A stretch of 64,000 nucleotides of DNA from Chloranthus sessilifolius (Eukaryota > Streptophyta > Magnoliopsida > Chloranthales > Chloranthaceae). Below are positions 1,645-61,900 of the stretch, one piece after another (within the stretch, counting starts at the first letter, position 1; every line of letters begins with the position of its first letter). The position numbers were made by a program, and so were the translations under genes. The stretch is from positions 32,676,936 through 32,740,935 of the forward strand of contig CM037597.1 in assembly GCA_021018995.1 (NCBI GenBank). The letters are read 5' to 3'. The notes beneath the pieces are model-generated. The model searched no databases and was not told where the DNA came from. It was given only the letters and a program-made list of their open reading frames with translations.

Positions 1645-4242
1645 ATGACAGCCCGTATTCCTGCACTCGGATATCCATGCCATCAGGATCATGCTCTGAA
1701 TGTTCCCAGGGACAAATTAAAGAGTGTCTACTCATATAGCAAAAATTGGAGTAGACACAATCCAGTAGTGGGAGATCGAGTCATCATATTAGGCACTAAA
1801 AGAATAAAGAAACAAAACCATGCATATATATAAGGACAAAAGAATATACATCCTCAAAAAGGAACCAAGAAGAACCACTGGTGATGGACATCCATCACCC
1901 AAAACAATGGTTCCTAATAGTGGTTCCTATAGAATGTATAATAATACACGTAAAAAGAAAACAACATCCATAGTTAATAAATACAGACGGTGGCTACCAG
2001 GTGCACAATAATCTAGAGTACAAAATAGATACCAAAATATAACTAAGTGCCCAATGTTGCTAATAAAACTCGAGGGTATTTCGGATCCTCCTCCTCGACC
2101 TCAGCCCGCCTCGGGTCATAACTGTGGTCGCTACCTCGTAACCTATTAATGTTATAGAAAATAGGGTGAGCTACATCTAAGCTCAGTAGAAGAATTTCAA
2201 TTAAACTTGCATCTTAATTGTAAAATATGATTTCAGAATGTATCTCATACAGATAAGGAAGCAGAGTATAAACAGAACTGAACAGATATAGACAGATGAT
2301 ATTACATGTAGAAAAATCAGAATGCAGAACTGGCAAGAGCAAACAGAACCTCAGAATTTGCAGGATGCTATGCGTATAGTATTTAGATGACTCAAACCAT
2401 GCATATCCCTAACTTAAGTAGCTCCCGTGAATATATAACACATGGTAGCCAGATGTGTGCCGATAGGAAATCCCAACCAATCGTCGTTCAATGACCAATT
2501 TCAGAAGGTGCAACAAGCTTCTACAATAGAAGAGTACTTGTGCCAGGAGGAATTTCCAGGCAGATGCACAAATATACCGCTGTGCCGGTCACGGTTATAT
2601 CGCCGAGTCGGTAGGGATCATCTGGATTCAAACTTAAAATCAAATACAAACATATGACCTCAAGAATCAGATATCAGAGCAGATAGCAGAAATCAGAAGC
2701 AGGCATCAAAATACAGGAAGTAGAGTTTGACTGAGCTTCATGTATATGCAGGCATGCTTTTTAAAACTAGAGTCAGAATACAGACGTTTAAGATAACATG
2801 CAGTCAAAATTAGATACATTTTAAGTTGAATTTCCCCTACCTCAGATCAGACTTTTTTAAGCAAATCCAAAGCTTTTTAAAGCATCACGGTCTGATCCTA
2901 GACCATATACATAGCATACTTGATGTCAGACATCTCAAAATACTAACTGGTACAGTGTCCAGTAGTGTTTTGTCTATAAAACTAAAATAACAGAAAATAG
3001 GGGTGATTGATCGATCAATGTCCGTGCTTGATCGATGAATCATCGAATTTGATCAATCAATTACTTCCCTTGATCGATCAATATCTTCCTTTAACTGACA
3101 AATAACATAGGGGATTTGATTGATCATTGCCCTTGCTAGATCGATCAATCCACCTCATTGATTGATCAATCTTGTCAAACTCAAATTTTCCTCCTCCTGT
3201 TTGCACACTTGACTTATAAAATTTGATCGATCAATCTTTCTCATTGATCAATCAATGTCCACATTGATCGATCATTCTTGCCTTTGATCGATCACCTCTC
3301 TGTGATCGATCAACCTCTCATATTGATCGATCAATTCTAAATTTGATCGATCAACCTTCAGAATTGATCGATCAATGCCCATCGGGCATTGATCGTCCAG
3401 AAAAGCACTCTACTATTCTAATTAACTTCTTATACGAATTGATCGATCAATTCCTTACAGTGTTCAATCAATCCCAATCTTGATCGATCAATTAACTACC
3501 TTGATCGATCAATAATGAAAGTTTTTGTCATTAATGGCGATCACTATATTTTGACCTATTTTGACCTTTAACCCTTAATGGTTTCTAACAACCACTCATA
3601 CACATCCTTTTACACATTTATGATGATTAAACCTTAACAATCTTAGTCTAAAAACTCACCTATTTAAAGTCCTTTCCGGGATCTCGGCAAAACGATCCGA
3701 AGAGGGTTTCAGATCTCAAATCAGAGGTTTTGTCGCCGTCACGACCCGGAACAGCAGATGCTCGGCTCCGCTTTAACACACAGAGGTATCATACATCCTT
3801 GCAAGCCAACTCGACGTACCGACATCAATTCTGCCTTCTCAAATCAAACAACCTCAAACCTAGGTCTCTCCCAACTGTGGTTTCTCAAAGCAACCATCAA
3901 AAACAATAACCTAGGCTATAGATTTTCAGGAAAATAAGAAGGAGAAGATGAAAGGTAATCATTCCAGCCTTCATCCTTCTCTTATAAGCTAACCAATGGG
4001 ATATCTAGATATTTTCCTATTTTCTAAATTCTAATTTCCCGTGTGGAGCACATACACACCTCCTCGGCATATCACGCCTCATCACACATTAGACGCAACT
4101 TGGATTTACGTAAGAAGTCACCTAGGACTTTAATTTTCCATCGATTAATATTATATTCAAAAATTTTAATTTGTCTCGATTTCCGTGTCGAGCACACTTA
4201 TCGAAGCAATCGGGTTATGTTCAGAATTTTAGGATCGTTACA
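1645..4242 (-). repeat. Element A 5' LTR (about 2.6 kb)
   Basis: The minus-strand LTR begins TGTAACGATCC at 4242 and ends CGGGCTGTCATA at 1645, directly before the primer site. The expected terminal ACA is changed to ATA; element C still reads TGTCACA. No second copy is in the window, so the ends were set from the termini shared with C and D. It contains a palindrome array at 3003-3513 and otherwise no coding sequence. Confidence 0.75.
3003..3513. repeat. Palindrome array in LTR A (ATTGATCGATCAAT type)
   Basis: There are many irregularly spaced copies of TTGATCGATCAA with one or two mismatches, for example at 3321-3335 and 3361-3375. Spacer sequence between copies is not conserved, so this is not an ordinary tandem repeat. 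It stops abruptly on both sides within the LTR. Confidence 0.85.
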
Positions 4243-5472: not shown

Positions 5473-8216
5473 TCATTTTTGTGCAGCAAGTTTGTCATAC
5501 TCCTCCTTGAGCTTCTCCTTCCTCTTTAGTTTCTTAGTGCTGGCAACACCCTCCAAAGTCCTTTTGGTAGATGGTTTCTGAAGCTTGGTGCTGCCCTAGG
5601 CCATGGTGGGCTCCTTAATGGAAAGGCTTTTGGATTCGAAAGGACCCAAGGCTGAATATAAGGAGAGGGTCTCAACTAACCTACCCAGCATCTCAGATTT
5701 TTGCTTGCACATCTCGTAAAGGTCCAGGGATTTGAGGACCATTTTCCATAACTTCCACTCCTCTATCCCATGAGGTTCTAAAATAGGGTCAATCTCCTCC
5801 TACTGTACTTGATGTAGTAACACCATGACTGCATCCACTAAAAATTGCACATCCTCTTTGACATATGGGTTGGTCTTAATGGCTTTGGTGAGGGATGGCA
5901 GAGGTGAAAAGGTGTTGGTGCCATATGGGACAATGGCCCAATGGTGAGGTCATCCATGGAGGAGGGGGTGATGGGCAGCTCAAGAAGTGGTGGTGATGGT
6001 ACAATTAGGGTCAATGGCCGCTCCTCTTCCACAACAATAGACTCAAGTGGGGTGGTGGGGTAGGTAAAAGGTAAAAAGGGTAAGTCAGCGTCTAAGGGGT
6101 CAGTTGGGGTTGTAGCAGGGATGGGTAGAGCTTCTTCCTCAAAATCAGTTTGAGTTGAGGAGTCCCTGGTAGAAGGGGTAGGGATTGATTCTGCTACCTC
6201 AGCAGTGGAAACCACTACTAGAGGGGACAGCTGAGGGGATGGAGGTGGAGTGGGCACTAGAGTAGGTGTAGAAATAGTAGTTATAAGAGGTTGACTGGTA
6301 GAGATGGATGGGATTAGAGTGGAATGAATGGCCTGAAGGCAGGTGGCCATAGCAGACTGGTTTGCTGTGTTGGCTTGGAGCCGGGCTAGTATGGATGTGA
6401 GAAGGGAAAGAATTTGGGCAAAGGCCTCTGGTAGGATTTGGGCTTGGGTAATAAGTGGAATGGGTATAATGGACTGGAAAGGAGATGTGGGGGCATGCTG
6501 AAAAGGTGGGGTGAGAGTATGCTGGAATTGAGAAGGCTATGGAGAGTCAGGTAAAGGGGAGTACTCATGCCCAATGTCCTCCACAATGGAGTCAATCAGG
6601 GAGGAGTACCCCTTAATGGTAAAATGCTCTAAATCCTAGGTATGTGGATGTGAAATGGAAGTAGTGAGGCAATATCAGAGGGTATGGAGGGTGGAGAGGT
6701 GGTGATAGGGTAATATGATGTAGAAGGAGCTGCTGGTGCATGGCTCAAGGGTTCAACAACTGGGATGGATGGGCTAGCTGGAGGGGTTGTGGGTGGCTTT
6801 GATTTTCTCTGGTAAGTGGATGTGATGGGGAGTGAAGGTAAGGTGACAATAGGGTCTGTGGTAGGAGGAGCTGATAAAGGTGTGATTGTGGTGATGGTGG
6901 AAGGGGTGACTGAGCTGCTGGGAGGTATGGGGACTGAGATGGATGGTATAGAGGGTGATGGAATGGGAATGCTGACAACATCAGAACTAATAACAGGCAA
7001 AGGCACAGCAGTGGAGGGAAGGAGTAGGGATGCAGAGGTTACAGGTGCATGCATTAACTAGGACCAGCAGAGGTGGGCAGAGGTTCTGAGCTAGCATATG
7101 TAGAGGTCCCAGCTGCAGCTGATGGGGCTATAGGGATCACAGGTGCAACTCCTGAGCTGGTCACCTAAGGGGCTTCTTTTTCAGGACTCTCAACTAATTT
7201 TTTCTTGCTTTTCCCAATCAGGATCCTACTAGTAGACCAGACCCTACTTCCAAATACCTTAGGGCTCACTTTCTCCATTGGCTCATCATGTTGTATCACA
7301 AATTTCCCTTTTCTTAGCAAAGCAGTGATGAGTCTACTGTAGGGTAACCCTGGCAAGGCTTGTCCTCTTTTGATCTTTTCATTCACATCTACCATGACCT
7401 CAAATATCAGCTGGGAGGAATTTATGAACTAACCCTTGGAGAAAAAGTACAGGGCATCCACTATAGGAGTTCTTCTCTCTTGCTGATGTCCACTGACATA
7501 GATGTTCTTCCTCAAGATTGAGTCTATGAAAAGTAGGCTAGGGTCAAGGTCTCTCCTAATCAATGACTCCCTAGAGCCCACAATGCCTTGAGTCAGATGT
7601 CTGGCCATTGCTCTAAAGGACACATTCTCAGGTGCTCCTAAACCATAAACTGGGTCAAACTGATGGGACCCCTAATGCCAACCCACTATGACTGTAGTCC
7701 GCAACCAATTCCCAATTATCAATCAAAATTACAGGGGTAGGCTCAGTTGACCCTGGCTTCATCTTCTTCCTGATATTCTGACACCACAATTTGACCAGTC
7801 TAGGGTAGGATTTTTCATATAATGGGGTCAACAAAGGTGTCAGGGATGCCTTCACCAAAGTAGTCTAAGGTCTGCTTGCACTCCTCTACCTTAGAAAAAT
7901 AAGGGAGGTAAAAAATTATCTCAGGAATCAGGCCTAAGGCATCCACAAACTCATTGGGGGTTGCTAGGTTCTCAGGGATTCCAGGGATTTCAGGTACAAC
8001 CTTAGGTTGAGGTTCAGGCATAGGGACATCCTCAGCTATTTTCTTAGCAATTTTGGCCTTCTTAGCTTTCTTAGGTTTTTCCATGATGAGCTTCGTCTTA
8101 GCAGGTGGGTCCTCTTTGGGCTGTGTGGCTAGCCTACCGGATTTTCTGATAGATTTTTAGGTAGATTTGGAAGGGGCTTTGAAAAGATCAACTAGGGTAT
8201 CCTCACGGTCAACCAT
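5473..8216 (-). pseudogene. Extra ORF of element B, PF20167-like plant transposon protein, broken
   Basis: The start at 8216 opens an acidic then Lys-rich N-terminus (KKAKKAKIAKK near 8050). The middle part (about 7930-7180) has the pattern of the putative plant transposon protein family PF20167: an LVKLWCQNIRKKM block, then LDPSLLFIDSILRKNIYV, and IFEVMVDVNEKIKRG followed by LPYSRLITALLRKGKF. The C-terminal half (about 7100-5850) is extremely Ser/Thr/Pro-rich. A short Lys-rich coiled tail ends at the TGA at 5473. Frame changes occur near 7817 and 7640, and stops near 7430 and 7165. The function of the family is unknown. It sits where Athila elements carry their env-like ORF, but I see no transmembrane segment. 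Lys-rich ends would suit a nuclear or DNA-binding protein, which is inference. Confidence 0.65.
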
Positions 8217-9242: not shown

Positions 9243-10437
9243 TCAGTCACACTTTGGAGGTTCTTGAAGGTGAATGGCCACCACAGGCTCAACTATATTT
9301 TCAACAAATATTTTGAGCCTTTGACCATTGACTTTCATTATCCTACCATCCTTTGGATCCATAATTTCAACAGCTCTAGATGGGGATACATGCATTACAA
9401 TATAAGGTCCCTCCCATCTAGATCTCAACTTGCCTGGGAAAATTTTTAATTTGGAATTGAACAACGATACCTTATTGTCAACAATAAACTCCTTTCTCAG
9501 CAAATGCTTGTCATAAAAAGCTTTGGCTTTTTCTTTGTAGTTCCTTGCATTGGAGTAGGCTTCTAATCTTAGCTCTTCCAGCTCTGACAACTGCAACTTC
9601 CTATGCATTCCAGCAGAAGTTAGATCGACATTCAATGATTTAATAGCCCAGTAGGCTTTGTGTTCTCACTCTACTGATAAATGGCATGCCTTGCCATATA
9701 CCAACCTAAAGGGAGACATCCCTATTAGGGTCTTATAGGTAGTTCTATAAGCCCAAAGAGCATCAGTTAACTTCAGGTACCAATCCTTCCTATCTCCTCT
9801 CACAGTTTTCTCTAAAGTATGTTTGATTCTCTATTAGAAATTTTCACCTGCCCACTGGTCTGTGGCTAGTATGGGGTGGCAACTCTATGTGTCACAGAGT
9901 ACTTTCTAAGTAGGTTTTCAAACTGTCTATTGCAGAAATGGGCTCCCACATCACTAATGATAGCTCTGAGGGTGCCAAACGCGAGAAAATTATGTCCTTC
10001 AAGAAATTGAGGACAACTCTGTGATCACTGGTTCTTGTGGCTATGGCCTCAACCCATTTGGACACATAGTCCACAGCCACAAGAATAAAATTGTATCCAT
10101 AAGCAGGATGGAAAGGACCCATGAAGTCAATCCTCCAAATGTCAAATAGTTTAACAACCAGTATAGGCTGTAAAGGCATGAAATTTCTTTTGGAGATACT
10201 TCCCATTTTCTGGCATCTTTTACAAGCTTTGCAATGCTGCCATGCATCTTTGAAGAGAGTGGGCCAATAAAACCCACTTTGAAGTACCTTTACAGCAGTC
10301 TTGTTTCCACTGAAATGGCCTCCACATGCCTGTTCATGACACATGGTTAATATGTTGTGAAATTCATTCTCAGGGACACACCTCCTCACAACTTGGTATA
10401 CACAATGCTTGAAAAGGTATGGATCCTCCCACATGTA
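9243..10437 (-). pseudogene. Element B integrase, broken
   Basis: The N-terminal zinc-binding HHCC domain is visible around 10380-10200 (H-E-Q-A-C-G-G-H, then CKACKRCQKMG). The catalytic core follows with first Asp in WRIDFMGPF (near 10130) and second Asp in IISDVGAHF (near 9945). The expected catalytic Glu of the GQVE motif reads GQVKIS (near 9850), so the third catalytic residue is Lys. The C-terminal region retains KLFPGKLRSRW-like and KVNGQRLK motifs and ends at 9243. Frame breaks near 9960 and 9650 and a stop near 9860 make it inactive. Integrase would insert the cDNA copy into chromosomal DNA. Confidence 0.9.
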
Positions 10438-10599
10438 CTATCTGATTTGGGAAAAGACCTGTCCATTTTATTCCAATGTGGGGGAATCCTACCCACTGCC
10501 AAGTAATTTACTATGTCTGCAAACCAAGGTGTTGTCCTGCTGACAGTAAACAACTGTTCATCAGGAAATGAGTCATTGATGGGCAGCCTATCAAACTCA

Positions 10600-10985
10600 G
10601 CAACTAGGATCCTTGATAGGTGGTCTACAACCACATTTTCAACCCCTTTTTATCTTTAATCTCAAGATCAAACTCCTGTAATAGGAGGATCCATTTGATT
10701 AATCTTGGCTTGGCATCCTTTTTAGACAAAAGGTACTTAAGGGCTGAGTGGTCTGTGAACACCACAATCCAACATCCTAACACATAAGAGCTGAATTTCT
10801 CCAAAGCATAGAAAATGGCCAACAATTCCTTCTTAGTTGTGGTGTAATTTAGCTAAGCATCAATCATGGTTTTGCTTACATAAGCAATCACACAAGGTAA
10901 CTTATTCTTCCTTTACCCCAAAACTTCACCAATAGCAAAATATGATGCATCACACATCAGCTCAAATGGCAAAGAGTAATCATGT
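10600..10985 (-). pseudogene. Element B RNase H, broken
   Basis: The three acidic blocks can be read: CDASYFAIGEVLG near 10950, [17 protein letters not shown] near 10810, and [13 protein letters not shown] near 10760. The [15 protein letters not shown] segment follows, then the VVDHLSRIL hinge to integrase near 10630. The family removes RNA from the RNA-DNA hybrid during reverse transcription. A frame change lies near 10640 and a stop near 10855. Confidence 0.88.
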
Positions 10986-12370
10986 ATTTAAAGGACAAGT
11001 GCGGAGGTTAAACAAACTTTTAAAAACTCAAAAGCAATGAGACATTCATCATTAAATTCAAAAGGAACCTCTTTGCACAGTAAGTGACAAAGAGGTTTTG
11101 AGATTTTGCTAAAATCATTGATGAATCTCCAATAAAAACCAGCATGCCCCAAGAAAGATCTAACTTGTTTGATAATTTTAGGTGGGGAAAAATGTGCCAT
11201 CAAATCAATTTTAGCCTGGTCTACCTCTATGCCTTTGTGGGAAACAACATAGCCAAGGACAATGCCTTGATTGACCATAAAATGACTCTTTTCCCAACTC
11301 AACACCAAGTTGGTTTCCTCACATCTCTATAGTACTAGGCTGAGATGATATAGACATTGGCTAAAACTTTTTCTAAAGATAGAGAAATCATCCATGAATA
11401 TCTCTAAAAATTGATCAATCATGTCAGAGAAGATGGCATACATACACCTTTGAAAAGTTAGGCATCCTTCTATAAGAAAAAGGTGCTAAATGGACATGTG
11501 AAAGCTATCTTTTCCTAGTGTTGTGGATACACAAGGATTTGGTTATACCCAGAATATCCATCAAGAAAGCAATAAAAAGCTTTGCCTGCCAACTTATCCA
11601 AAATCTGGTCTATGAAGGGCAAATGAAAATGGTTTTTTCTGGTTTTTAAATTGAGCTTTCAATAGTCAATGCACACCCTCCAACCAGTGGTTTCCTTAGT
11701 TGAAATTATCTCACCAGAATCATATTTAACCACAGTGATTCCAGATTTCCTAGGTACCACCTGAGTAGGTGTCACCCATTCATAATTTGAAATGGGATAG
11801 ATGACTCCAACATCTAACAATTCGACTACCTCCTTCATTACTACCTCTTGCATGTGGGGATTTCACTTTCTCTGCATCTCTCTAGAGGGTTTGGAATGCT
11901 CTTCCATGTGGATCTTATGCATACAAATAGCAGGGCTGATGCCTCCAAGATTAGTAAAAGTCCAACCTATTGCTCTCTTATGCTTTTTGAAAACACACAA
12001 CAGTTCTTCCTCTTGCTCATCAGTGAGGGAGGAAGAAATGATCACAGGCAACTTCTGATTAGCTCCAAAAAATATATATTTCAAAGACTTGGGCAGCTGT
12101 TCCAACTCTACATCAGGTGGACTTATGAGTGAAGGCAACAAAGGTGCCTTTGAAGGTTATGAAAGAGGCAACACAGCTGGTTTCCAAGGAGGATACCTTG
12201 TTGCTGGCCCCATATCAAATTTAAGGCTTTCACCTCTTGAATCATAAGTTTGGGGGCCTTTTCTTCCACAATTTCACTCCACACATTTTCAAAAATACCA
12301 CACAAATCATCACAATGTAGCAGCTTGGGCAAAGTCTCTTCCACAAGCTCATCCAATGCATCAATCAAAA
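10986..12370 (-). pseudogene. Element B reverse transcriptase with upstream linker, broken
   Basis: The linker at 12141-11870 carries the Athila-type block SLTDEQEEELLCVFKKHKRA and GWTFTNLGGISP. RT fingers begin at VVELLDVGVIYPISNYEWV (near 11820) and TGWRVCIDY (11660). The catalytic box reads FMDDFSIF at 11377-11399, so both Asp residues are kept. The thumb/connection block SFLGHAGFYWRFINDFSKIS lies near 11130. There are frame breaks between 11340 and 11650, and stops at several places. The FMDD variant of YxDD is usual for this branch. Confidence 0.9.
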
Positions 12371-12424
12371 ATCAATCTTCACTATCCAAGTGAGACCGAC
12401 TTGCTGCATTGTAAACATTCAATT

Positions 12425-12937
12425 TTACTTCATATTGCCAAAAGATACCTCCATTACACCTGATCTACGTTGTATACAAGCATTGGCAGTGTCCAAGAAA
12501 GGCTTTTCCAAAATTACAGGAATGGAAGTAGTGCACTTGCTTGGTTCCATGTCAAGAACCAGAAAATTTGCTAGATAAAAGAATTTGTCAATCCCAACTA
12601 ACACATTTTCTATCATTCCCACTGGCCTCCTTTCATATTTATCAGCCAGCTGTAGCACCATATGTGCGGGCTTTAATTCTCTCAAACTTAACTTCTCATA
12701 AACTAAATATGGAAGTAGGTTCATAGTTGCTCCCAGATCTAACAAGGCTTTTTCAATTGTGTGATCCCCAATGATGCAAGGGATTGTGGGAACTTCAGGG
12801 TCTTGGAGCTTTGTTGGGGTTGCAATAGACAACACTTGATTTACTTTTTCAGCACAAAAGACCTTCTTGAATAGGTGTATCCCAGATTGTCTTTTGTGTG
12901 TGCACAAATATTTCAAAAATTTTACGTAGGCTGGCAC
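12425..12937 (-). pseudogene. Element B aspartic protease, open but isolated
   Basis: A 170-codon open stretch carries TIPCIIGDHTIEKALLDLGA, where DLGA is the catalytic loop in Athila-type proteases. A conserved LQLADKYERRPVGMIENVLV block follows, then VPVILEKPFL-like and RRSGVMEVSFGNM ends. This is the best-preserved part of B. It cuts the Gag-Pol polyprotein. It follows gag directly, without the intron seen in A, C and D. Confidence 0.9.
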
Positions 12938-15030: not shown

Positions 15031-15049
15031 ATCCCCAACAGCGGTGCCA
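15031..15049 (-). other. Element B primer-binding site (Asp tRNA type)
   Basis: The minus strand reads TGGCACCGCTGTTGGGGAT. The usual Athila-type site TGGCGCCGTTGCCGGGGA differs at a few positions, two of which are CpG-type transitions. The site lies nine bases inside the LTR edge. Confidence 0.75.
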
Positions 15050-15058
15050 AAAACTTAT

Positions 15059-20023: not shown

Positions 20024-20162
20024 GTTGACCTGCGATGGTCACATAAATAGTACATCAGATCAGCCTAGTCAACTCTAAGAGCCTAACCTAAAATTTATAG
20101 ACTTTAATGTCATTGCTTCTACTCTATCATAGCTCTGAACACACATAAGACATACAACCTAG

Positions 20163-45280: not shown

Positions 45281-45285
45281 GATCA

Positions 45286-46596
45286 TTGCTATTCCGTGGA
45301 AGGTTATACATACCTGTTGATGCCAAACTGAGGCAGACAATATTGGAAGAAGCACATAAGTCCAAGTATTCCATTCATCCTGGTGGTACTAAGATGTACC
45401 AGGATTTACGAAAGAGTTATTGGAGGGGATTGAAGAAAGACATTGTAGAATATGTGTCGAAATGCCTGGTGTGTCAGCAAGTAAAGGTGGATCACCGACA
45501 CCCAGCAAGTTTATTGCAATCTCTACCAATACAAGAATGAAAATGGGAGTCTATCTCTATGGACTTTATTGTGGGATTACCAAGGACTATGAGGAGCCAC
45601 AATGCTATATAGGTAATAGTGGATAGACTGACAAAGTCGAGAAACTTTCTGCCCTACAACATGACTTATACGGCAAGCAAGTTGGCAGATTTATATATGA
45701 GAGAGATTGTCTGACTACATGGTATTCCAACAAGCATCGTGTCCGATCGTGATCCGTTGTACACCTCGATATTCTAGCAAAGATTTCAAGAAGGTATGGG
45801 CACGAGATTAGACTTTAGTTCGACATTCCATCCGCAGACTGATAGTCAGACAGAGAGAGTCAATCAGATTATTTAAGATATGCTTGGAGCTTGCATGATA
45901 GATTTTTAGGGATTGTGGGATCAGCATCTTTCGTTGATAGAATTCGCGTAAAATAATAGCTTTCAACAGAGCATCGGGATGGCTCCGTATGAAGCACTAT
46001 ATGGACGAAGGTGTAGGTCTCCGACCAACTGGGAAGAAATATGTGACAAATTTGTATTGGGACCAGAAGTCATAAAGAAAAATGTCGAGACCGTTCGTAT
46101 TATACGAGAAAGAATCAAGACGACACAGAGTCGACAGAAGAGCTATGCGGACATCAAGCGATCGACCATGGATTTTCGAGCGGGAGATCACGTGTTTGTG
46201 AGGATATCTCTAATGAAGGGTGTGATGCGCTTAAAAAATCGTGGAAAGTTGAGTCCTTGTTATATTAGACCGTTCGAGGTATTGGGAAGAGTGGGTGAAG
46301 TTACATATAGGGTTGCATTACCCCCACTACTTGATAGAGTGCACGATGTATTTCATGTTTCTATGTTACAGAAGTATGTGCGAGACTCAACTCATATCCT
46401 CGATGCGCCACTAGTTGAAGTCTACAGGGATCTGACGGTCATAGAAGAACCAACGCAAATTTTGGACCGAACCGAACATGTATTGCGCACAAAATGGATT
46501 CCTTTGATGTTGATCCAATGGAAGAATCATTCTAGAGAGGAAGCAGCGTGGGAACGCGAAGCTGAGATTCGCGACCAGTATCCTTCTTTGTTTTAG
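45286..46596 (+). pseudogene. Element D integrase with chromodomain-like C-terminus, broken
   Basis: The HHCC zinc domain is intact (45350-45480: HKSKYSIHPGG ... CLVCQQVK). The catalytic triad can be read: SMDFIVGLP (Asp, 45560), IVSDRDPLY (Asp, 45737) and DSQTERVNQ (Glu, 45842). Stops occur at 45538, 45711, 45776, 45872 and 45908. From 45979 a long open part runs to 46596: a GPEVI linker, the GKLSPCYIRPFEVLGRVG block, and a C-terminal chromodomain-like module (PTQILDRTEHVLRTKWIPLM ... WKNHSREEAAWERE). That tail marks the Tekay/Del chromoviruses, where it helps direct insertion to marked chromatin. Confidence 0.93.
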
Positions 46597-46747: not shown

Positions 46748-47159
46748 AATTTTGATTGATCAAAATTATTTCTAATCGATCTAATATGATTTCGATTGAT
46801 CGAAGTGTAAATCGACCGATCGAAATGCCTAGGCCGAAAGTTGATATTCAGTATATTAAAGGCATGATAAATTTGTTCAATCAAATTGATTTTCGATAGA
46901 TCGAATTTAAAATTCGTTCGATCAACAAGAAAAAGTCATTTGGTCGAACTAAGTTTTTGTCTGATCGAAAAGAAATTTTGTCCGATCGAAAATTTTAAAG
47001 GCCAGGGGTTACCTGAGACAACTCGATCGATCAAAATTTACTTGTTTGATCAAATTTTTAATTCGATCGATCAAAATTAAACTCGATCGATCAAAATCGC
47101 ATTTTCGTTCTATTTTATTGACTTTCAATCGATCGAAATTTATTCGATCGATCGAACTG

Positions 47160-47160
<1 letters not shown>
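46748..47160. repeat. Palindrome array between pol and extra ORF of D (TCGATCGATCAAA type)
   Basis: The motif is the same as in the D LTRs, in otherwise unrelated sequence. Copies include tcgatcgatcaaaa near 47024, 47062 and 47083 and attcgatcgatcgaact at 47143. The array runs into an AT microsatellite. Confidence 0.9.
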
Positions 47161-47469: not shown

Positions 47470-48898
47470 CGAGATTAGCCTCCAAACCAACTACGTCAAA
47501 GAACCCAAAACCGTAACGGGTTCTTTGCAACCCAAAACCAGCACGGGTTCTTCGCAACCACCACCAAACCCTCCACCGAAACCTATTGTCGAGCCACCAG
47601 CCACTTCACAAGCACCTTGACATGACCAACCAAATGAATGGTGGGCCAAGAAGGGGTTTGCTTATGAGTATACCATAGATTCGACCCTATTTGAGACATC
47701 CAATGTGCCCGGCATTGACGCTTGGGCACTGGACTATTTAAGCAAGGTTGGATTGGATAACCTGTTGAAACCCATCCATCCCTATTTCTATCCTCGCCTC
47801 ATGCGACTCTTTTATCAAAATATGTTTGATGGCCCGAACCCTAAAAATACTATTTTCACCAAGGTTGACGGAAAAACATACGTATTTACCTACCCAATGG
47901 CTTGTAAGGCCTTAGAATGTTTTGAGAGTTATGGGGACGACATTAATCTGTTGCCCCCAAACGAAAAGGATATACCACGCCTACAAATCACAGAAAAGAT
48001 GACAGGGGGTTGACTTGCCTCTGGTCAAGCTATCAAACAAGCAGATCTATCGAGCTATATGTGGATGCTCGATACGATCTTCAAATGCAACTTGTACCCC
48101 ATTCGACACAAGACAGAGAGGTTAGGGGTGTTGATGCAAGCACTATTTTTTGCTTTTGAAGGCCGATGGTTTAATGTCACTGTTGTGGTTTTTGAGGGAT
48201 TGAAGCATGGGAGGAAGAAATTGTTAGCAGGGGCGGAAAAGCCCGAGGAATACATCTCGTACGCGGGCCTTATTTCAGCTATGTTTGATGAGTATGCGGC
48301 GACCACCGTACATAAGATTTCATCTCGAGAGCTTAAATCCTCCGATAATGTGGTGTTCTACACTTTCAAACACTGGAGGAAAACCTAAAATTGGCTAAAA
48401 CCATGCCTTCAGCTAGCTCTTCAAGTACCACCTATCCCACCTCAACCCTAAGAAGGGCCTGCTCAGGACGCACCACAGCCAGACTGACCAGCTCCCGAAA
48501 TTCCTCTTCAAGATCAGTCGGATATCATCCCTCCACCTTTGTAGCCAGACTACGTACCAGTGCCACCCCCTTATCATCAAGCAACTCTTATGACCAATGA
48601 GGCATTGGCTGCTCTCATACCGGAGAGTAATCGCCAGCTCAACCAGCGCCTTGATTACCATGAGCTCCTACTGGAGGACAATCTACACTCTAGGTACCCG
48701 ACAGATTACCTCCAGAGGATGGCGATCATGAGCGAGTGGGTGTTTGGTTCTTCTACGTCAAGTGTTGATGCTGAGAACATCCAGCCTGATGAGCGTGCCG
48801 ACGAGGGTCTAGCCAATGATGTGGCTGGGGGAGCTGATGAGCCTATTGGTCCGGAGGAGGGAGTAGACAAGCCTATCGGACTAGAGTGGGGGAGCTGA
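47470..48898 (+). pseudogene. Extra ORF of element D, PF20167-like plant transposon protein
   Basis: One frame can be followed from about 47500 to 48898, with in-frame stops near 47621, 48012 and 48387 but without frame shifts in the conserved part. A Pro/Thr-rich N-terminus leads to NEWWAKKGFAYEYTIDSTLF, then PYFYPRLMRLFYQNM, KVDGKTYVFTYPMA and MWMLDTIFKCNLYPIRHKTE. LGVLMQALFFAFEGRWFNV and EEYISYAGLISAMFDEYAA complete the family pattern of the putative plant transposon protein domain. The C-terminus is acidic and Gly/Pro-rich. An upstream open frame at 47280-47516 is in another frame and could be the true N-terminus after a shift or splice. The family function is unknown. Presence in a chromovirus suggests capture or exchange with Athila-like elements. 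Confidence 0.75.
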
Positions 48899-49276: not shown

Positions 49277-49289
49277 AAGGTGGAGAGAA
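49277..49289 (+). other. Element D polypurine tract
   Basis: AAGGTGGAGAGAA lies directly before the 3' LTR start TGTAACGTCC. This is where plus-strand DNA synthesis would be primed. Confidence 0.85.
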
Positions 49290-51810
49290 TGTAACGTCCC
49301 TAAGTTTTAACCCATGAACAGTGTGCCTCGGTACACGTGTCGATGGTCTGCACGTTGACGTCCGTACCGATAGACTAAGTAATGTCTATAGATCAAATCC
49401 TATGGAGAGGATTATGTATAAATGGGTTAGGTTATGGGTTAGTGAACTCTCAGACACCAACCTTGGTGTAGTTGTTTTGCACCTTAGCCTAGGGCTTGAT
49501 TATAAAAAATGAAATAACTACCCATAAAAGCTTGCATTTATTTTCCTTTGTTGCATATGATTAGAAGTTAAGAGGGGAGAGGTCGAATCGAGGGCATTGA
49601 TTGCTTATGAATGTGAGATCCATTCGTTCGTGATGTGTGAAGCGAAGGATTTGATCGAATCAGAACAAACGTTGTTCACTTGGTGAACCCTAGTCCGATC
49701 TAGAAGCAAGGATTGGGGATTCGGAGGAAATCAAGGTATAGAATTTAAGGTTAGATTGTGAAATTGTATTAATGTTGTTTTTATTCAATTTAGGATCAAA
49801 GAATCATAAGAAAGGGGTTTGATTTAGGAAAGAAAAGAGAACGAGTGCGAAAACCTAAGAACAGATGAAATCTATTCATTTTGACTGATCTAACTTTGGT
49901 TCGATCGATTGAAATGGACTTAATAGGAAGAATTCAAAGTTTGAAGAAATTAGTTCGATCGAAATCAATTTCGATCGAACGAATTGTGTTTCGATCGATT
50001 GAATCTCACACTCGATCGATCGAAATGTATAGGATAGAAACTTTGGAAATCTTGCTGTGAGGATTCGATTGATCGAATTAGAACTCGTTCGATCGAAATG
50101 TGTGATTCATTAATTAGCTTCTGAGGGATTTGACCGATCAAAATATTTTCGATCGATCGAATTATATGATTTCGATCGATCGAATTAGAATTCATTCGAT
50201 CGAACTGTGTTTTCGTCAAATTGGCTTCCGTGGGATTCAACCGATCGAAATTATTTTCGATTGATCAAATTTATGATTCGTTCGATCGAACTGAGAAGTG
50301 TTGTATATGTTCTAAGGAGTTCGATCGATCAAAAGGAGTTTGATCGATCAAAACTAAGTTTCGATCAATCGAAATTCCCAGATTCGGGATTTTGTTGTGT
50401 TTTGACTGAGAGATTTAGGGGAAATCTTTCGAGGTTTGTTTAACATCGTTCTAATGTGTGAACCATGAATTTGATATGTTTAGGTGACTTGGTGTTGTGT
50501 GATGAAAAGCAAGCCCAAACGTCGGATTGAGCGCGTGCGGGTTGAGATCTCAAGGTAGGGAAAAACTTAATATCATGTGTATTTAATACATTAGCATGTA
50601 TGTTATGTATGATGTATTCTTTGATAAAATCATATGAATTGTGTTACAATGCGCTCTTTGATAAAACCATGTAAGTTTTGAAAAGTGATATGCATAAGTA
50701 TGCTTCTGAAAATATGTGTTTATGAGCAATCTTTCAAGATTCAATTCAAGTTGATACATGTGTTTGAAACTTTGGACGGACTTTCAAAATTAGTTATAAA
50801 TATCACTTTACACGGTGATGAGCTATATATATGCACCTCGATTTAAGGTTCTATGTGAATACCTAACCGACGCAGCGATATAACCGTGATTGACACGGCA
50901 GGATGTCCGTGAGTAGTACGACGGCCAAACCGAACACCCTTTATGATATGTGTGATTTTATGACTCTTACCGTACAACAGTAATTATGTTCGACCAAGTG
51001 TCCAACTCTATGAGACCTTAGATATATGTGAAAATGGTTTACGTGAACGACGATGGTGGGTATTCTATCGGGGACTTTAGGCTATAGTTCCTCATGCAAT
51101 ATATTAAGTAAAGCACCTTTAAGTTTCTTTTCATTCGTTAAGATCATGATGTGTACATGTGTTACGTTTTCAAGCACCATATATGTGTTTCATTTCATGA
51201 CATCACTAATGTGCATTCGTTTCGCTAAACTTTGTTTCCATTATGTCAGAAGATATATGTTTGATATTCATAATATGCATGATATAAATATTTCCCTACT
51301 GCACTTTGATGAAGCTCATTCTTCGACTAAATGTCACAGGTTCTGGTGAAGACGTTGGAATAGAGATTTCAGAGAGGGAGGATCCTGATTATTCTCTTGG
51401 TGAGGATTTCGATGAAATTCCCCCTGAGGGTTGTTTTCTGTGCGCTTGGCCTGACATGTCTGACCTTAGGTTGAGAGATTAAAATTGTTGAGTTTTGTAA
51501 GGGATATGTGTAAAACTGAATGATGACAAAAATTCTTATTTGGTGAACCATGTTTCCGTAAGGAAGGGTCCTTACTGGTAGTTCTTGTTGGTTCTTTTCC
51601 CATAGGCATTTATATGAAATTAGAACCATCATTTTGAGCTTTTGATGATAAACGTTAGTACCTCCTTAGTTCATTATGTTAGTTAGCTTGTATGGGTCTG
51701 CTTTGTTTTGGCTGTGCGAATGATATGCCACGTACTTCGTCCGGGGTTCGGCCTTAGCACCAACCCACTAATGGCACGGGTTTCGGAGTGTCAAAATCTG
51801 GACTGTCACA
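49290..51810 (+). repeat. Element D 3' LTR (2521 bp)
   Basis: It begins TGTAACGTCCC and ends GGACTGTCACA, keeping the proper termini. It is 96 bases shorter than the 5' LTR; a good part of the difference lies in the palindrome array. It is followed by the ATTTA target duplication. Confidence 0.93.
49880..50375. repeat. Palindrome array in D 3' LTR (TTCGATCGATCGAA type)
   Basis: Copies include actcgatcgatcgaaatg (near 50010), ttttcgatcgatcgaatt (50147), tttcgatcgatcgaatt (50170) and gttcgatcgatcaaaagg (50319). It has fewer copies than the 5' LTR. Confidence 0.92.
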
Positions 51811-55527: not shown

Positions 55528-55700
55528 GAGATCCGCTACCTAATGTTAGCGGATCACTCTCTTATGATAGCGATACGCTAACATAAGGTAGCAGTTGTTA
55601 TCTTAAGGTTGTGAACACTACCTTAAGATAGCGAACGCTATCGTAAGGTAGCGGTCACCACCTTAAGATAGCGATCCGCTAACATAAGATAGCAGTCGAT
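55528..55700. repeat. Palindrome array upstream of the F transposase
   Basis: Copies alternate as taagatagcga-(cgcta): gatccgctacctaatgttagcggatc, accttaagatagcgaacgctatcgtaaggtagcgg and so on. The core is the 18-base palindrome CGCTATCTTAAGATAGCG in full or half copies. Confidence 0.9.
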
Positions 55701-55774: not shown

Positions 55775-58525
55775 AATGGATGTTCCCCTACTCTGTCATT
55801 TGTCATTTTGATGGGATTCGTATCGGTGATAATACTTATAACGGTGGGCATCGACAGATTGTCGCTATTAAAGAGAAGATATCATTTGATCAATTTGTGT
55901 AAAAAATATATAATGTCAGTAGGACTCGATCAAAAGAAATTTTATTACACTATCAGTTTCATTGCGCATAGGGAAGGAGTTGGTGTTTGCCGAATTGTTG
56001 GACTCCGATAATCTTGTAAACTTATTCAGAGCATATCGTATTAGTGATGATGTGATAAATATTTATATTGAAAAATTATTAGCAACTCTCGTCACGAAAA
56101 TTTTATCGTCTTTCGAACCATTTCAACAATTCCAAGAAACAAACGAAGATTATAAAGAATGTGAGGAAAAGGTCAGATTAGGAGATGATAATGGTGTGAA
56201 CCAAGAATATTTGATTGAAAATAAAGGGATATGGTTTGAAGAAGAGAACATTGCTGCACCAATGATAGTTGACGATAATAAAATTATGAATATAAGATTT
56301 TGTCTATATCGTAGGCCACTGGAGCAACCCTCTTCTGACATTCCAATGAGAGAAGGCGATCAGGACTAAGGAAATTGTCCTCAACTGAATCCGATGCATG
56401 ATACATATCTGCTTAACTTTGAATCGATAAACAATATATTTGATTGAAATCAGTGGGAAATATTTTTGTGAGTCCTTAGTCCATACTAATGGCCTTCCGA
56501 ACTAATAGCTTCGGAGCCAACGATAATCAATGCCATAATATAAGAGTCAATCACACCTCAAACATCCCGACCTCAGCGAACAACAACTGAAGGAAGTGCA
56601 CCTCTACCAACCGTACCTCGACGAACTCAACCCCAAGCACATAATAATCATCCAGTCAATGACAGTGATAATGATCCTGAAAGTACTGAAACACCGCCCT
56701 CGCCCACTTCGCGTTTAGATACTAATAGGAGAATTGATCAACCTCTGATAGACGAAAACTATGATCTTAATGACTCAGAGGGCGGGTATATGGATTCAGA
56801 TGATAGGGAAACTGTATGAATGGGAGCCATTAACTGTTGGTCAAGCATTCTAAAATAAGAATTCCTTTCAGAAAACCCTTAAAGAGTTTGCAATGTTAAA
56901 TAATTTTCAAATTAAACCAATAAAAATTAGTCCACTTCGAGTTACAGAGAGGTATGTTGAAGTAGGGTGTGTTTGGTGAATACATGCATCAAAATTGGTG
57001 GGTGTGGATACGTTTGCTGTGAAGACTTTCCGCCCGTAATATATGTGCGGAAGGTCAGCCTTCGAAAGTGTACAACACCAGTGTACGACATCATGGATAG
57101 CTTCCTTCGTGAGGGATAAATTGTTAAAAGGCTTTGACTAGAATCCTGCTTTAATAATTTTTTATATTAAAAAAAAAATGGTGTAACAGTAGGTTATTAA
57201 AAAGCATGGAGAGGGAAAAAAATGACATTGAATGACATCCGAGGTAGCTGAAAGGAGCAATTTAAGATGTTACTGTCCTATGTTGTCAAATTACAGCGGG
57301 TCGATCCAGACGTAGACACTGAATTGTGTCGCGAGCCTAATAATGACTTTCAGAGGTTCTTCGTGGCATTTGGACCATGTATTAGGAGCTTTCGTAATAC
57401 TTTGCGAAGAATAATTGATGTAGATGAGATATATTTACGGGGGTAATACAAAGGAGTGCTTTTAATAGCTACGGGGATAGACAGGAATAGACATTTATTT
57501 CTCATAGCGTTTGACGTTGTACCCAAAGAAAATGAAGATCATTAGACATGGTTTCTTAAACTATTAGGGAATCGCGTAATTGAGAACTTTGAAGAGCAGT
57601 TTGTATTGATCTTAGACCGCTAGAAGGGGTTGATGAAAGCTGGGCATAATATTTGTCCTAACGATTTTCACAACTACTGTATGTGACACCTAGCTTTGAA
57701 TCTTTTTTATACATATAAGGATACAATCTCCGACCTCTGTTCTAGGTTGCTACTCGTGCATTCTCGGAGGTAAAATTTAATAAAATTTTATGAAAAATAA
57801 AAGACTAAGCCCCCCGAAATGTACAACATGGATTAAAGAAATCAGTGACCATTTTTGAGTGCGCGCATATTTTTCAGGGAGGCGTTATAATATGTTAACA
57901 ACAAATATAGCTGAAAGCAATAATAGTATATTGAAGATAGCCAGAGAGAAACTGATCGTGACAATGCTAAAAATCATTCACACAAAGGTAGCTGAATTCT
58001 ACCTTTGGTGTTAGGAGGAAGGAAATAAAATGACACACGTGTTGACACCGATGGCGGAAGAGCACATAACACGAATTTCAGGGTGGTCCCGTCGAAGAAT
58101 ATTATTCCCTATGGTCGTGATACATTTCAAGTTAAATGGGGAAATACACTCACAGTTTTGATCTAGAGAAATAAACGTGCACATGTGGATGTTGGGCTAT
58201 CCTTTAATTACCATGCTCGCATGTGATCATTGCATTATCGCACAGGAACAGGAAAAGAGAGATTCCTTAGTTTTGTGAGCATTGATTTACTAGTGCCTTA
58301 TTTAAGGAAATTTACAAAGAAATTTTCTTTATTCTGATTGTTGATAAGTGTCAATAGACCGTTTTAAGGGAGGGCATCGAAGTTTTGCCTCCGCACAAGA
58401 TACGTCAAGCCGATCGCCCAAAGAAAATGAGGATAAGATTTAAAGCCGAAGTTCGACTACTACGATATAAAAATTGTAACGAATATGAACATAATCGCCA
58501 CTCATGTAAATTTGTTATAATATAA
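55775..58525 (+). pseudogene. Element F MULE transposase, broken but nearly full length
   Basis: All modules of a MULE transposase can be found in order. The PB1-like N-terminus lies at 55785-55990 (HFDGIRIGDNTYNGGHRQIV). An acidic linker follows, then a Mutator-type DNA-binding region near 56930-57110 (VEVGCVW, CGRSA). The DDE core follows: IIDVDEIYLRG-YKGVLLIAT (57412, normally DGTHL) and GIDRNRHLFLIAFDVVPKEN (57478). NIAESNNSILKIAREKL lies near 57910, the SWIM finger CTCGCW...PCSHVIIALSH near 58170-58240, and a C-terminal zinc knuckle ending EHNRHSCK near 58505. Numerous stops and frame shifts are present. Confidence 0.88.
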
Positions 58526-58629: not shown

Positions 58630-58755
58630 CATTATAAGACAGCAGACCGCTATCTTACAGTAGCGTTTCGCTATTATACCATAACGAACCGATATTATAC
58701 CATAGTGGACCGATATTAGCAAAAAAAATTATCTTCAAACAATAGAGGACCGCTA
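58630..58755. repeat. Palindrome array between the convergent genes of F
   Basis: Degraded copies: gaccgctatcttacagtagcg, cgctattataccataacg, gaccgatattataccatag. The pattern is that of 55528-55700 and 60425-60575. Confidence 0.75.
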
Positions 58756-58929: not shown

Positions 58930-61900
58930 TGTGAACAATGAATGTCCGATTTTGGCTCGAAGTTGCAGTATATCTTTCTCCTCGAAATCTATTGTCTGTC
59001 ATTTGGAGAAGCATTCAACATACTTCAATACAAATGTACTGCAGTCCCAACAGTTGTGTTGGCATAGAGATCGACATTGTCCATTACCGTTAGCTTCCAC
59101 AGTTGATCGAAAGCAGAACTTAATCCGACAGTGTGAAAAAGTCATGGCAGATGATGCAACAACCTTTCTTTGTGGGCTTCAAACTTCTTTGAATACTCTT
59201 GATCAGCTGGGTCTATCAGCTTCACAACACGATCTGCTACGAACACAATAGCCAATGCCCAATAGTGATGTTTCTGGCTATACATTAGGAAATAAATATG
59301 TGTGCAACCGGAGATCTAATTGGTACTGTGTTAATTAAGAGACATAAAAACTGTTAATGTAATTTAAAAAAGAACTTACTGTCCCACAATCAACAATATT
59401 AATACCGTGTGTCGTACTCTTAAGCTGGACCTCAAGCAGCTTGTAATGATGACAAACCTGCCACCTGTCATAGTATGCCTCCCACCTATCTATGTCGCCG
59501 AGTGGTCTTAGATTTTCATCACGGATAATTTTTTTAAATTTTGAGTGGTCGATTATAACCAAGGACTGAAATTTATCATTAGAAAAAGTCATGAATTGAA
59601 AGGCGTGAATAAAGTAAATAAATAAGGGCAGATAAATAAATAAAATAATAAAGAATAGAAATGATACCTTGGCCGCGGCCGATGCAAACTAGCTCTTATC
59701 CATCTTTTCCAAAAATATAGTCATTCTTACTCTCTAGGACCTTGAAGTACGCATCACTTCATTGTCAAGGCACGCCCTTCCCTTCAGGACCCTTAAATTT
59801 TCGAGAGTGATGTCAATACCCGAGATAGTATTCACGATCACAGAATTGTCATCCGCAGGCCAGTTCAACATACTGACCATAAATTTATGCTCCATGGACT
59901 GTGGCTCAACCTCTTCTTCTTCCATGATAACCACTCTTTGTCATTTTATACAAGCTTTGTTGGTTGGCGTCTTTCTCTTCTTTCGTGCCCGCAGCTCATC
60001 CCGTGCCCTTCCCTTGTCCGTCGGCCTTACTCTTTGATGTAGAGTGCTTTACCAGTAAGGATTTAAGTGATATCGACTACGACTCGTGAGTAGGCTGGGT
60101 TAGTGGAGCATCAACCATTGGGTTAAAGCCCTCGACCGGCGGTTGGGGGCAAGGGGTTGAGAGGAAGAAGGCTAGGGTGCAGAGGGTTGAGGGGCAGAAG
60201 GCTTAGGGATAGGGGGTTCAAAGGCAGGTGGTTGGTGTGTAGAGGGCTGAGGGCTGAGGGGCAGGGGTTTGAGAAGCAGGTTGTTGGGGTGCAGAGGGCT
60301 CAGGGGCAGGGTGATGAGAGGCAGGGGTTGGGGGTAACAAACTCATCAAAGAGCACCGAAGAAAAAAAATCATCCTACATCAGTACAAAACATGAAATTA
60401 TCTAAAGTGAATTCAATACATACCATTACCTAGTGACCCGCTATCTTAAGATAGCGTCCCACTAACTTAACGCTATCTTAACATAGCGGGTCGCTAACTT
60501 AACGCTAGCTTAAGATAGCGATACGCTATGGTAAGATAGTGGATCCCTATTTTAAGCTAGCGATCTGATATCCTAAATTATTTATTTAAGAAAAATTTAA
60601 ATATGTTGAAGTTAGACTAAGTTCATTTGACAAATGAGACTTTACTGTCTCAAGGTCTTTCCTCATTACAACATTTTTGCTAGTCAAATAGGCTTCCTGA
60701 TCTTCTAGAGACCCTACTTGCGCTTGTAGGGTCTTCTTGTCTCTTCCGAGCTGCTCAATAATTATCGCCTATCCTTTTAAAACAGTAAAGGCACGCTTGA
60801 AATCACATTTTATCTCTTTAACCGCCATTCGGAGAGATGAGCACTCTATCCTCAGCTCCGTTACTTCATTTATAAGTTAGGGATGCCTAGCCGACTGTTC
60901 TCTGGTTGACTGCTGCCTACTTTTCGGTTGTTTTCCCTTTGATTCCGCTCGTTGTTGTATAACAACCTCGCACTCGTCATTATTGTCACTATCGTCATCG
61001 TCATCGTCATTATGCTCACTGTCATCATCGTGTAGCTACTGGGCTCTTTTTTGGGTTTGGTATTCTCTTTCCTATTCCCTTTCCATCTCTCTTTGCCTGA
61101 AGAAGAGCCGAACTAATCAATATTGTAATTCGTGTTTTCCAACATCGAGATTTTTGATGACCGAAGAGTTAAAATTCTCGAAAATAATTTAGAGTCCGGT
61201 TGAATTTCAGGGCTTCCCATTTCATCATCCTCGGAAATAGATTTTTCAGCTGAGTACAAGCGAGGTCAACTCCTAGAAAGTTCTCCAATGCCCAAAGTTG
61301 TAGGGCAATAGTCCACCCGTAGACGTTATATTGCCCCTTTTAGCCGGCTGTCCCTAAAAGAATTTGTATCGAATGGTTTCTTCCTCTATCCCAGCCACAT
61401 GCCTAGACTCAGGATCTGTTAACATGTTAAGGCATAAAATCAATGATATATCAAACTCTTACAGTACTACTTTGGTGCTCTTCACCTTGAACACGTTATC
61501 TTGAACCCAAAATATCAAAATCGCGTCAATCAAGTCTCTAATAAACACTAGTTTCTCATAAATCCTAAATAGATGACCGAAAATTGATTCATCTAGTATC
61601 CTCTTCCACTTTTCGTTGTAATGCAAGTAAAATTTCCTAATACTAACCCCTGTACACTTCCTGAAGGCCTTTAAAGACATCGACATCTTAGAATCAGCGA
61701 GTGAGAATTGCAAAAAACATAAGAATAATTAAGTAACAAAAAAATTTGGAGTTCCTTTGATTTCCACTATAAGAAGTCTATATTTTCTCCTAACTTCTTT
61801 TAATATTGTTGTGTTTCACTCCATAAAGACATTATAAAATGAAATAAGTGTATTGGAAGGTATTAGATCTTCAAAGAATCTCTTTACACCATCAATGATT

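What the first reader, a model, noticed from the sequence alone, without database searches (positions are those of the whole stretch)
3003..60575. Every large element carries its own array of a short palindrome
Seen directly: A has ATTGATCGATCAAT (3003-3513), B CTCTCGACAGGTT/AACCTSTCGASAGGTT (8560-9022, 16380-16950), C TCGCCCGGGCGA-like (21765-22075), D TTCGATCGATCGAA (39590-40150, 46748-47160, 49880-50375), E CTGATATCAG and GACTCAYRTGAGTC (28190-28790, 29700-30125, 32815-33700, 38640-38950), F CGCTATCTTAAGATAGCG (55528-55700, 58630-58755, 60425-60575). Motifs differ between elements but share palindromy, a length of 10-18 bases, irregular spacing with unrelated sequence between copies, and location in LTRs, introns or spacers, not in coding exons. 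Two unrelated transposon classes show the same architecture. Ordinary slippage would copy spacers too, so selection for the motif itself, or repeated motif seeding, is suggested.
Basis: partly seen in the sequence, partly recalled or inferred. Interest (0 to 1): 0.88.

Follow-up and report, generated by a model that had tools for sequence, protein, structure and literature searches.

The report
Phased palindrome arrays in plant transposons
Different jumping genes in this plant each carry many copies of a short mirror-image DNA word of their own, set about two turns of the double helix apart in their control regions, which looks like a docking strip for a matching protein that several of these elements may encode themselves.

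Summary
The arrays are real and genome-wide. Counts in the 2.17-Gb genome against the reversed word (also palindromic, same composition): A 30,732 vs 1; D 14,269 vs 10; B 6,904 vs 8; F 1,965 vs 5. In A, B, D and F I found 1 site in about 19.6 kb of coding segments.

(1) Spacing is not irregular: 131 of 262 neighbour distances are 20-21 bp, best pooled period 10.5 bp; 23,724 genome pairs of the A motif lie 20-21 bp apart. (2) All four LTR elements (A-D) carry diverged, partly broken copies of one additional 3' gene (Transposase_32-like); in A, B and D the array lies between pol and that gene as well as in the LTRs. (3) F is Mutator-type, and E has DUF1985, a domain of VANC anti-silencing proteins, which bind family-specific motif arrays.

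Best explanation: binding arrays for an element-specific dimeric protein, most likely self-encoded; a VANC-like system in LTR retrotransposons. Binding is untested. Motif-protein linkage rests on four families with C weak, and four sampled LTR elements showed no such gene.

The parts
1636..4242 (-). Element A (Ty3-type), 5' LTR; its 3' LTR lies left of the window in L033
   Evidence: self-blastn 86.8%, alignment length 2,669
3003..3513 (.). A LTR array, motif TTGATCGATCAA / ATTGATCGATCAAT, often 20-21 bp apart
   Evidence: the same motif in A's pol-aORF spacer and 3' LTR (L033)
328..840 (-). A gag piece with zinc knuckle
   Evidence: Pfam zf-CCHC
5841..8156 (-). B, additional 3' gene region; 7258-7632 is homologous to D's additional protein
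   Evidence: tblastn E down to 4e-8, about 26% identity
8560..9022 (.). B array between pol and the additional gene, motif ACCTSTCGASAGGT
9246..12937 (-). B pol pieces (protease to integrase)
   Evidence: Pfam Integrase_H2C2 over cut-off; rve and protease below cut-off
15047..17337 (-). B 5' LTR (3' LTR in L040/L033, 89%); B is inserted in C, A in B
16380..16950 (.). B LTR array
17399..20038 (-). C gag and RT pieces; pol continues in L040/L041 beyond B
20178..23123 (-). C 5' LTR (3.0 kb, 89% to its 3' LTR in L041)
   Evidence: coordinates converted by me
21765..22075 (.). C LTR palindromes, TCGCCCGGGCGA-like, sparse and degenerate
   Evidence: 4 sites, weak
28190..28790 (.). E left array, CTGATATCAG-like
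29128..29508 (+). E open frame with DUF1985 (domain of VANC proteins), below the curated cut-off
   Evidence: Pfam E 1.6e-5, 25.4 bits against 35.1
29700..30125 (.). E internal array CTGATATCAG
32815..33700 (.). E internal array GACTCAYRTGAGTC
34873..35295 (-). E Ulp1 protease (C48) domain
   Evidence: Pfam 21.7 bits against 20.7
37978..38217 (-). E second DUF1985 match, inverted near the right end, below the cut-off
   Evidence: 19.1 bits against 35.1
38640..38972 (.). E right array, inverted relative to the left one
   Evidence: inverted repeat 28233-28407 / 38751-38925, 78%
38980..41595 (+). D 5' LTR
   Evidence: 86.7% to the 3' LTR
39590..40150 (.). D LTR array TTCGATCGATCGAA
   Evidence: 13 sites
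42148..46593 (+). D gag-pol pieces, Ty3-type with a weak chromodomain match at the end
   Evidence: Pfam Retrotrans_gag, RT_RNaseH, SH3_Tf2-1; Chromo 17.1 bits, below cut-off
46748..47160 (.). D array between pol and the additional gene
   Evidence: 8 sites
47481..48895 (+). D additional 3' gene (broken here), Transposase_32-like
   Evidence: 150 of 150 scored genome matches 69-100% identical to its first piece, the window itself among them; Pfam on relatives
49289..51808 (+). D 3' LTR
49880..50375 (.). D 3' LTR array
   Evidence: 16 sites
55528..55700 (.). F array CGCTATCTTAAGATAGCG, eight sites 20-21 bp apart
   Evidence: up to 5 mismatches of 18
56833..58249 (+). F Mutator transposase: DBD_Tnp_Mut, MULE, SWIM (in three frames)
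   Evidence: Pfam over cut-off
58630..58755 (.). F array after the transposase
   Evidence: 2 sites
60425..60575 (.). F right array
   Evidence: 5 sites, 21 and 32 bp apart

Best explanation
Each array is a row of binding sites for a two-fold symmetric (dimeric) sequence-specific DNA-binding protein, set on one face of the helix two, three, four or more turns apart so that neighbouring dimers can cooperate. Each element family has a motif of its own, so each array marks its own family. The likeliest binder is a protein the element itself encodes: the additional 3' protein (Transposase_32-like) in the LTR elements, a VANC-type DUF1985 protein in E. Its sites lie upstream of its own gene and in the LTR, so it would raise its own expression and that of the element, most likely by removing or blocking silencing, as VANC does in VANDAL transposons. 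Shown here: palindromy, helical phase, location, family-associated motifs, maintenance between lineages, presence and low dN/dS of the additional protein. Inferred: that a protein binds, that it is this protein, and that the effect is anti-silencing or activation.
For: Motif excess genome-wide. Neighbour distances peak at 20-21 bp and group at multiples of 10.5; 23,724 A pairs at 20-21 bp, control 0. Nearly noncoding only in A, B, D and F. Same motif in LTR and in the spacer before the additional gene in A, B and D. Homologous additional gene in A, B, C and D, and 13,856 first-look Transposase_32 candidates in the genome, 150 of 150 scored over the cut-off. dN/dS 0.04-0.12 in 12 of 13 computable pairs of D-type copies, 8 further pairs saturated. 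7 of 8 chosen D-type copies keep the TCGATCGA array. Motif better kept than spacer in 6 of 7 pairs. A basic N-terminal stretch in five of the seven aligned rows and a helix-like C-terminal segment (my reading). E carries DUF1985 and Ulp1; DUF1985 is drawn in VANC proteins by Hosaka 2017 (PMC5735166, passages), where VANC21 binds a short motif arrayed in noncoding regions.
Against: No binding data. No solved relative of the additional protein or of the DUF1985 piece by sequence. Motif-protein linkage rests on four families. C has the gene but only 1-2 spacer palindromes. In none of four other sampled LTR elements (L007, L012, L013, L022) was the additional gene found in the 3' stretch held, although L013 and L022 have arrays there. 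The motifs of A and D share the core GATCGATC / TCGATCGA, and two A-type sites lie in D's arrays, so 'own motif' is not absolute. Transposase_32 scores of D-type and C proteins are below the Pfam cut-off. No DUF1985 seen in F. The VANC motifs printed in the passages are not palindromic. dS is saturated or above 1 in many pairs. The listed D places show weak phase (R 0.33, 19 distances). The out-of-phase count did not complete.
Confidence: 0.5

Rival explanations
1. The arrays bind host transcription factors or chromatin proteins: each family has captured and multiplied a host site as an enhancer; the additional proteins do something else.
For: Sampled LTR elements with arrays but no detectable additional gene (L013, L022). 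A TATA-like run follows the array in D and several relatives. LTR arrays are natural enhancer positions. A and D share a core word.
Against: B, C, E and F words differ from those of A and D and from each other, and further words occur in sampled DNA, which is hard to explain by one host factor. The same motif recurs before the additional gene in A, B and D. TATA next to the array is not general.
Confidence: 0.25
2. Mutational product: tandem duplication of 20-21-bp and longer units, gene conversion or hairpin-driven replication errors made the arrays, without selection for binding.
For: TRF finds units of 20, 21, 22, 41, 44, 47, 103, 107 and 134 bp. Spacers somewhat more alike than random. Motif no better kept than spacer between D's two LTRs and in the closest relative pair.
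Against: Spacers diverge while motifs stay in 6 of 7 pairs. 31-32- and 53-bp distances fit helix turns, not multiples of one 20-21-bp unit. Coding parts avoided. No such arrays in three shuffles of the sampled DNA; 0 of 55 control regions rich in inverted repeats.
Confidence: 0.15
3. The palindromes act in the RNA or in integration, for example genome dimerisation or packaging of LTR elements.
For: They lie in LTR and spacer parts of A, B and D, which LTR elements transcribe at least in part (general knowledge).
Against: The Mutator-type element F has the same design without a packaged RNA. Loop-less 10-18-bp palindromes in helical phase of DNA have no clear role in RNA (inference).
Confidence: 0.07

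Closest known systems
VANDAL Mutator-type transposons and VANC anti-silencing proteins of Arabidopsis (Hosaka 2017, PMC5735166, passages; Sasaki 2023, PMC10398659, passages)
   Same: Family-specific short motifs in arrays in noncoding parts of the element; related elements differ in motif; an additional protein; E has the DUF1985 domain of VANC.
   Different: Here the motifs are palindromic and in helical phase, and most carriers are Ty3-type LTR retrotransposons with a Transposase_32-like protein, not DUF1985. The stems 'palindrom' and 'spacing' occur 0 times in both papers; 'helical' was looked for only in the second, 0 times. A 2026 meeting report mentions unpublished structures of VANC with target DNA (PMC12859917, passages).
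Additional ORFs of plant LTR elements: Athila 3' ORF with Transposase_32 and Tekay 5' ORF (PMC11728184, passages), review PMC7264820 (passages), and the suggestion that such proteins might shape the element's epigenetic state (PMC12844716, passages)
   Same: An extra protein of unknown role; the Athila one is Transposase_32-like, as here. The general idea of a VANC-like role for LTR-element ORFs is already in print as an open question.
   Different: The Tekay ORF there is 5'; here the gene is 3' in all four LTR elements of the window and, in A, B and D, sits behind an array of the element's own motif. The passages seen propose no DNA target for it.
Retand elements with TRP28 antisense ORFs and tandem repeats between pol and 3' LTR (PMC11963269, abstract and passages)
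   Different: Different protein domain, antisense; ordinary tandem arrays; origin and function stated as unknown.
SIRC, short interrupted repeat cassettes of Arabidopsis (PMC10342631, outline and passages)
   Same: Short direct repeats with diverse spacers inside Gypsy, MuDR and other elements; some repeats hold palindromes.
   Different: About 57% of SIRCs have repeats without palindromes; no helical phase or self-encoded binder proposed in the passages seen.

Membership tests
VANDAL/VANC system | Mutator-type transposase | tested here: met
   F only: MULE, DBD_Tnp_Mut, SWIM over cut-off. Not found in E at 29.0-38.6 kb.
VANDAL/VANC system | DUF1985-bearing protein encoded by the element | tested here: inconclusive
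   E: two places below the curated cut-off (25.4 and 19.1 bits against 35.1). None seen in F at 55.5-60.5 kb. A genome-wide DUF1985-piece search did not complete.
VANDAL/VANC system | Family-specific short-motif arrays in noncoding regions | tested here: met
   A, B, D, F. E arrays: coding split not computed.
VANDAL/VANC system | Protein binds the motif and removes methylation | not testable with these tools
   needs EMSA, ChIP and bisulfite sequencing
VANDAL/VANC system (LTR elements A-D) | Being a Mutator-type transposon | tested here: not met
   A, C and D carry Ty3-type gag or pol matches, B integrase domains; so works-like, not member
Transposase_32 (PF20167) additional proteins | Pfam match over the curated cut-off | tested here: not met
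   Three D-type copies 17.4-21.8 bits, C 30.3 bits, cut-off 45; other genome copies over it, 150 of 150 scored
Ty3-type chromovirus (Tekay-like) for A, C, D | gag-pol with integrase followed by a chromodomain | tested here: inconclusive
   D: Chromo 17.1 bits below cut-off 25.1; the lineage name Tekay is my recall, no tree built
Athila-type for B | pol lineage plus 3' ORF | tested here: inconclusive
   3' ORF homology to D's shown; lineage by recall, no tree built

The most novel reading that the evidence does not exclude
Plant LTR retrotransposons run a VANC-like self-recognition system: a Transposase_32-family protein encoded between pol and the 3' LTR binds a family-specific palindrome, arrayed in helical phase in the LTR and in front of its own gene, and so turns on or un-silences its own family. 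Protein and palindrome co-diversify, and Mutator-type and LTR elements reached the same design with unrelated proteins.
Probability: 0.4. Interest if true: 0.93.

Novelty: new variant of a known kind. Interest (0 to 1): 0.8.

Why it matters
The functions of additional ORFs of plant LTR retrotransposons are described as unknown or unclear (PMC7264820, PMC11728184, passages). A concrete DNA target for each makes the question directly testable. If true, sequence-specific anti-silencing or self-activation would not be a peculiarity of VANDALs but a design reached more than once, also in LTR retrotransposons, a dominant class of plant DNA. It would also supply many new protein-motif pairs for reading how DNA-binding specificity evolves, and would explain a class of dispersed short repeats that is so far mainly catalogued.

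Tried and rejected
Homology of the additional protein and the DUF1985 piece outside this genome: the search for homologous proteins gave nothing at E 0.001; PDB sequences nothing. Rfam at gathering score: 0 matches. A general TATA box after the arrays: not general. Additional genes near other A arrays on C1: none found in the three stretches fetched. Additional gene in four other sampled LTR elements: found in none. Counts of a motif pair out of phase (25-26 bp) and at 31-32 and 41-42 bp (115) did not complete, so the phase claim rests and on the in-phase count alone. Structure prediction was not run: its stated list of allowed sources does not name loci cut with the fetch from genomes, and single broken pieces of the window would fold poorly.

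Literature searches. None listed a paper that I recognised as on helically phased palindrome arrays in LTR elements; listings were capped, most subscription papers and preprints are not held, and Sasaki 2022 (PMC9016345) is not held.
Full report
WHERE. The window is C14:32676936-32740935 of a 2.169-Gb genome in 32 contigs. Loci left of the window (L033, L040, L041) show that A is nested in B and B in C: A's LTRs are 1636-4242 and in L033 (86.8%), B's 15047-17337 and in L040/L033 (89%), C's 20178-23123 and in L041 (89%). D runs 38980-51808 with LTRs 86.7% alike. E (28.2-39.0 kb) carries two DUF1985 matches below the cut-off, a Ulp1 protease domain and a GRF zinc finger, with inverted arrays near both ends; no transposase was found in it. 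F carries a Mutator transposase in three frames.

ARE THE ARRAYS REAL. Yes for A, B, D, E and F, weakly for C. The same words read backwards, which are palindromes of the same composition, serve as genome-wide controls: 30,732 vs 1, 14,269 vs 10, 6,904 vs 8 and 1,965 vs 5; C's and E's words were not counted genome-wide. In twenty 10-kb stretches taken at fixed positions (5 Mb of C1-C14, 15 Mb of C1-C6; not random), 126 8-mers recur at least five times in 600 bp with differing flanks, in 24 merged regions; three shuffles gave none. 9 of the 126 are themselves palindromes, against 0.8% of all 8-mers; many of the others sit off-centre in a longer palindrome. 12 of the 24 regions are rich in one kind of inverted repeat (p at most 0.01), against 0 of 55 control regions; at least one of the 12 (L008) also holds an ordinary tandem repeat. 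Words seen differ: TCGATTAATCGA, TCGATCGA, TCGCTCGAGCGA, TCAAA-N-TTTGA, TCAATCGATTGA and others. So about half of such arrays are palindromic, with many different words.

SPACING. Over A (with L033, L002, L004), B, D, seven D-relatives, E, F and three sampled arrays, 262 neighbour distances up to 110 bp were pooled: 131 are 20 or 21 bp, with further groups near 32, 42, 53, 61-64, 74 and 82; the best period is 10.5 bp with R 0.66. Sites were called with mismatches and at least 12 bp apart. A, B, D, D-relatives, F and L009 each beat all 500 jittered sets; L013 and L023 are borderline (0.020, 0.028; n 7 and 5); E does not (0.366, n 14). The best single-family periods for A and F are 11.1 and 11.5 because almost all their distances are 20-21. 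The 50 places listed for each motif on C1 give 34 distances within 110 bp for A (R at 10.5: 0.56) and 19 for D (R 0.33, weak). An exact A pair at 20-21 bp occurs 23,724 times, its control 0 times. The out-of-phase count was asked for nine times and never answered.

PLACE. Sites per segment, segments drawn by me: A LTRs 18 and 18, spacer between pol and the additional gene 13, gag-pol 0, additional gene 0. B LTRs 16 and 16, spacer 11, gag-pol 1, additional gene 0. D LTRs 13 and 16, spacer 8, gag-pol 0, additional gene 0. F 8, 2 and 5 in its arrays, transposase 0. That is 1 site in about 19.6 kb of coding segments. C and E were not split this way; for C.

THE ADDITIONAL PROTEIN. D's frame 47621-48010 has 32,979 first-look candidates in the genome; the 150 scored are 69-100% identical, the 100% one being the window's own, and several have open frames of about 500 aa. 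Related genes lie behind pol in A (E 2e-7), B (E 4e-8) and C (E 4e-32 for one piece, 2e-42 for whole-length queries). Pfam files D-type and C proteins near Transposase_32 but below its cut-off; other copies in the genome exceed it, 150 of 150 scored of 13,856 candidates. Among seven of the eight D-type copies fetched (L025, with a short frame, was left out; the copies were picked partly for long frames) dN/dS is 0.04-0.12 in 12 of 13 computable pairs and 0.35 in one very close pair; 8 pairs were saturated. Where the N-terminus is present the proteins start with a basic stretch, then have a conserved core, a proline-rich stretch and a helix-like end (my reading). In four other sampled LTR elements the gene was not found in the DNA held.

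MOTIF AND PROTEIN TOGETHER. Of eight D-type copies chosen from the 150 listed, seven have a TCGATCGA array in front of the gene; the eighth, L032, instead has four copies of a TGGGCGTATATAATATATACGCCCA-like palindrome in what looks like another element's LTR (the LTR reading is inference). A's related protein goes with TTGATCGATCAA, B's with CCTSTCGASAGG. C has the protein but a poor spacer array. A's and D's words share a core. This is suggestive, not a proof of co-evolution.

SELECTION. Between D-type copies the motif stretches are better kept than the spacers in 6 of the 7 pairs tried (0.76-0.86 against 0.54-0.71); the closest pair shows no difference. The alignment may favour motifs. Between the two LTRs of D itself motif and spacer have changed alike (30 of 249 and 29 of 269), as expected if selection acts on replicating lineages and dead copies decay.

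MECHANISM. Palindromes suggest a symmetric binder, helical phase suggests binding on one DNA face, and family-associated words suggest self-recognition. VANC proteins of VANDAL transposons are the precedent: VANC21 binds YAGTATTAY, arrayed in noncoding parts of VANDAL21, VANC6 has other motifs, and the compared VANC proteins carry DUF1985 (PMC5735166, passages). E may be of that kind. For the LTR elements I propose the same working principle with an unrelated protein. What is not shown: binding, identity of the binder, effect on silencing or transcription.

PRINT. The passages I could see describe additional ORFs without a DNA target (PMC7264820, PMC11728184), raise as an open question whether LTR-element ORFs shape methylation as VANC does (PMC12844716), describe tandem repeats and a possibly DNA-binding antisense ORF in Retand (PMC11963269), and SIRC repeats in Arabidopsis elements (PMC10342631). 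Seven searches listed none that I recognised as on phased palindromes in LTR elements.

Noticed in passing
L037:257-498 and 1933-2400: A TTGATCGATCAA array lies about 1.4 kb from an open frame that reads like a MADS-box type I protein (name by recall).
   Followed up: no
L032:300-510: Four copies of a longer palindrome (TGGGCGTATATAATATATACGCCCA-like) in front of a D-type additional gene, in what looks like another element's LTR.
   Followed up: partly
47162-47217 and 54618-54673: Two pure AT dinucleotide runs of 28 units; the first directly follows D's spacer array, where some relatives have a shorter TATA-like run.
   Followed up: partly
22451-22822: An open frame of 124 aa lies antisense inside C's LTR and matches C's other LTR region at 82-86%.
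   Followed up: no
L021:8844-9262, L015:7256-7765, L020:8352-8935: Further dispersed palindromic or gapped inverted-repeat arrays with other words (TGACACATGTGTCA, GTCAAA-N-TTTGAC) in the sampled DNA, element type not determined.
   Followed up: partly
20986-21151: A 44-bp tandem repeat in C's LTR whose consensus unit holds TCGCTTGAGCGA.
   Followed up: no
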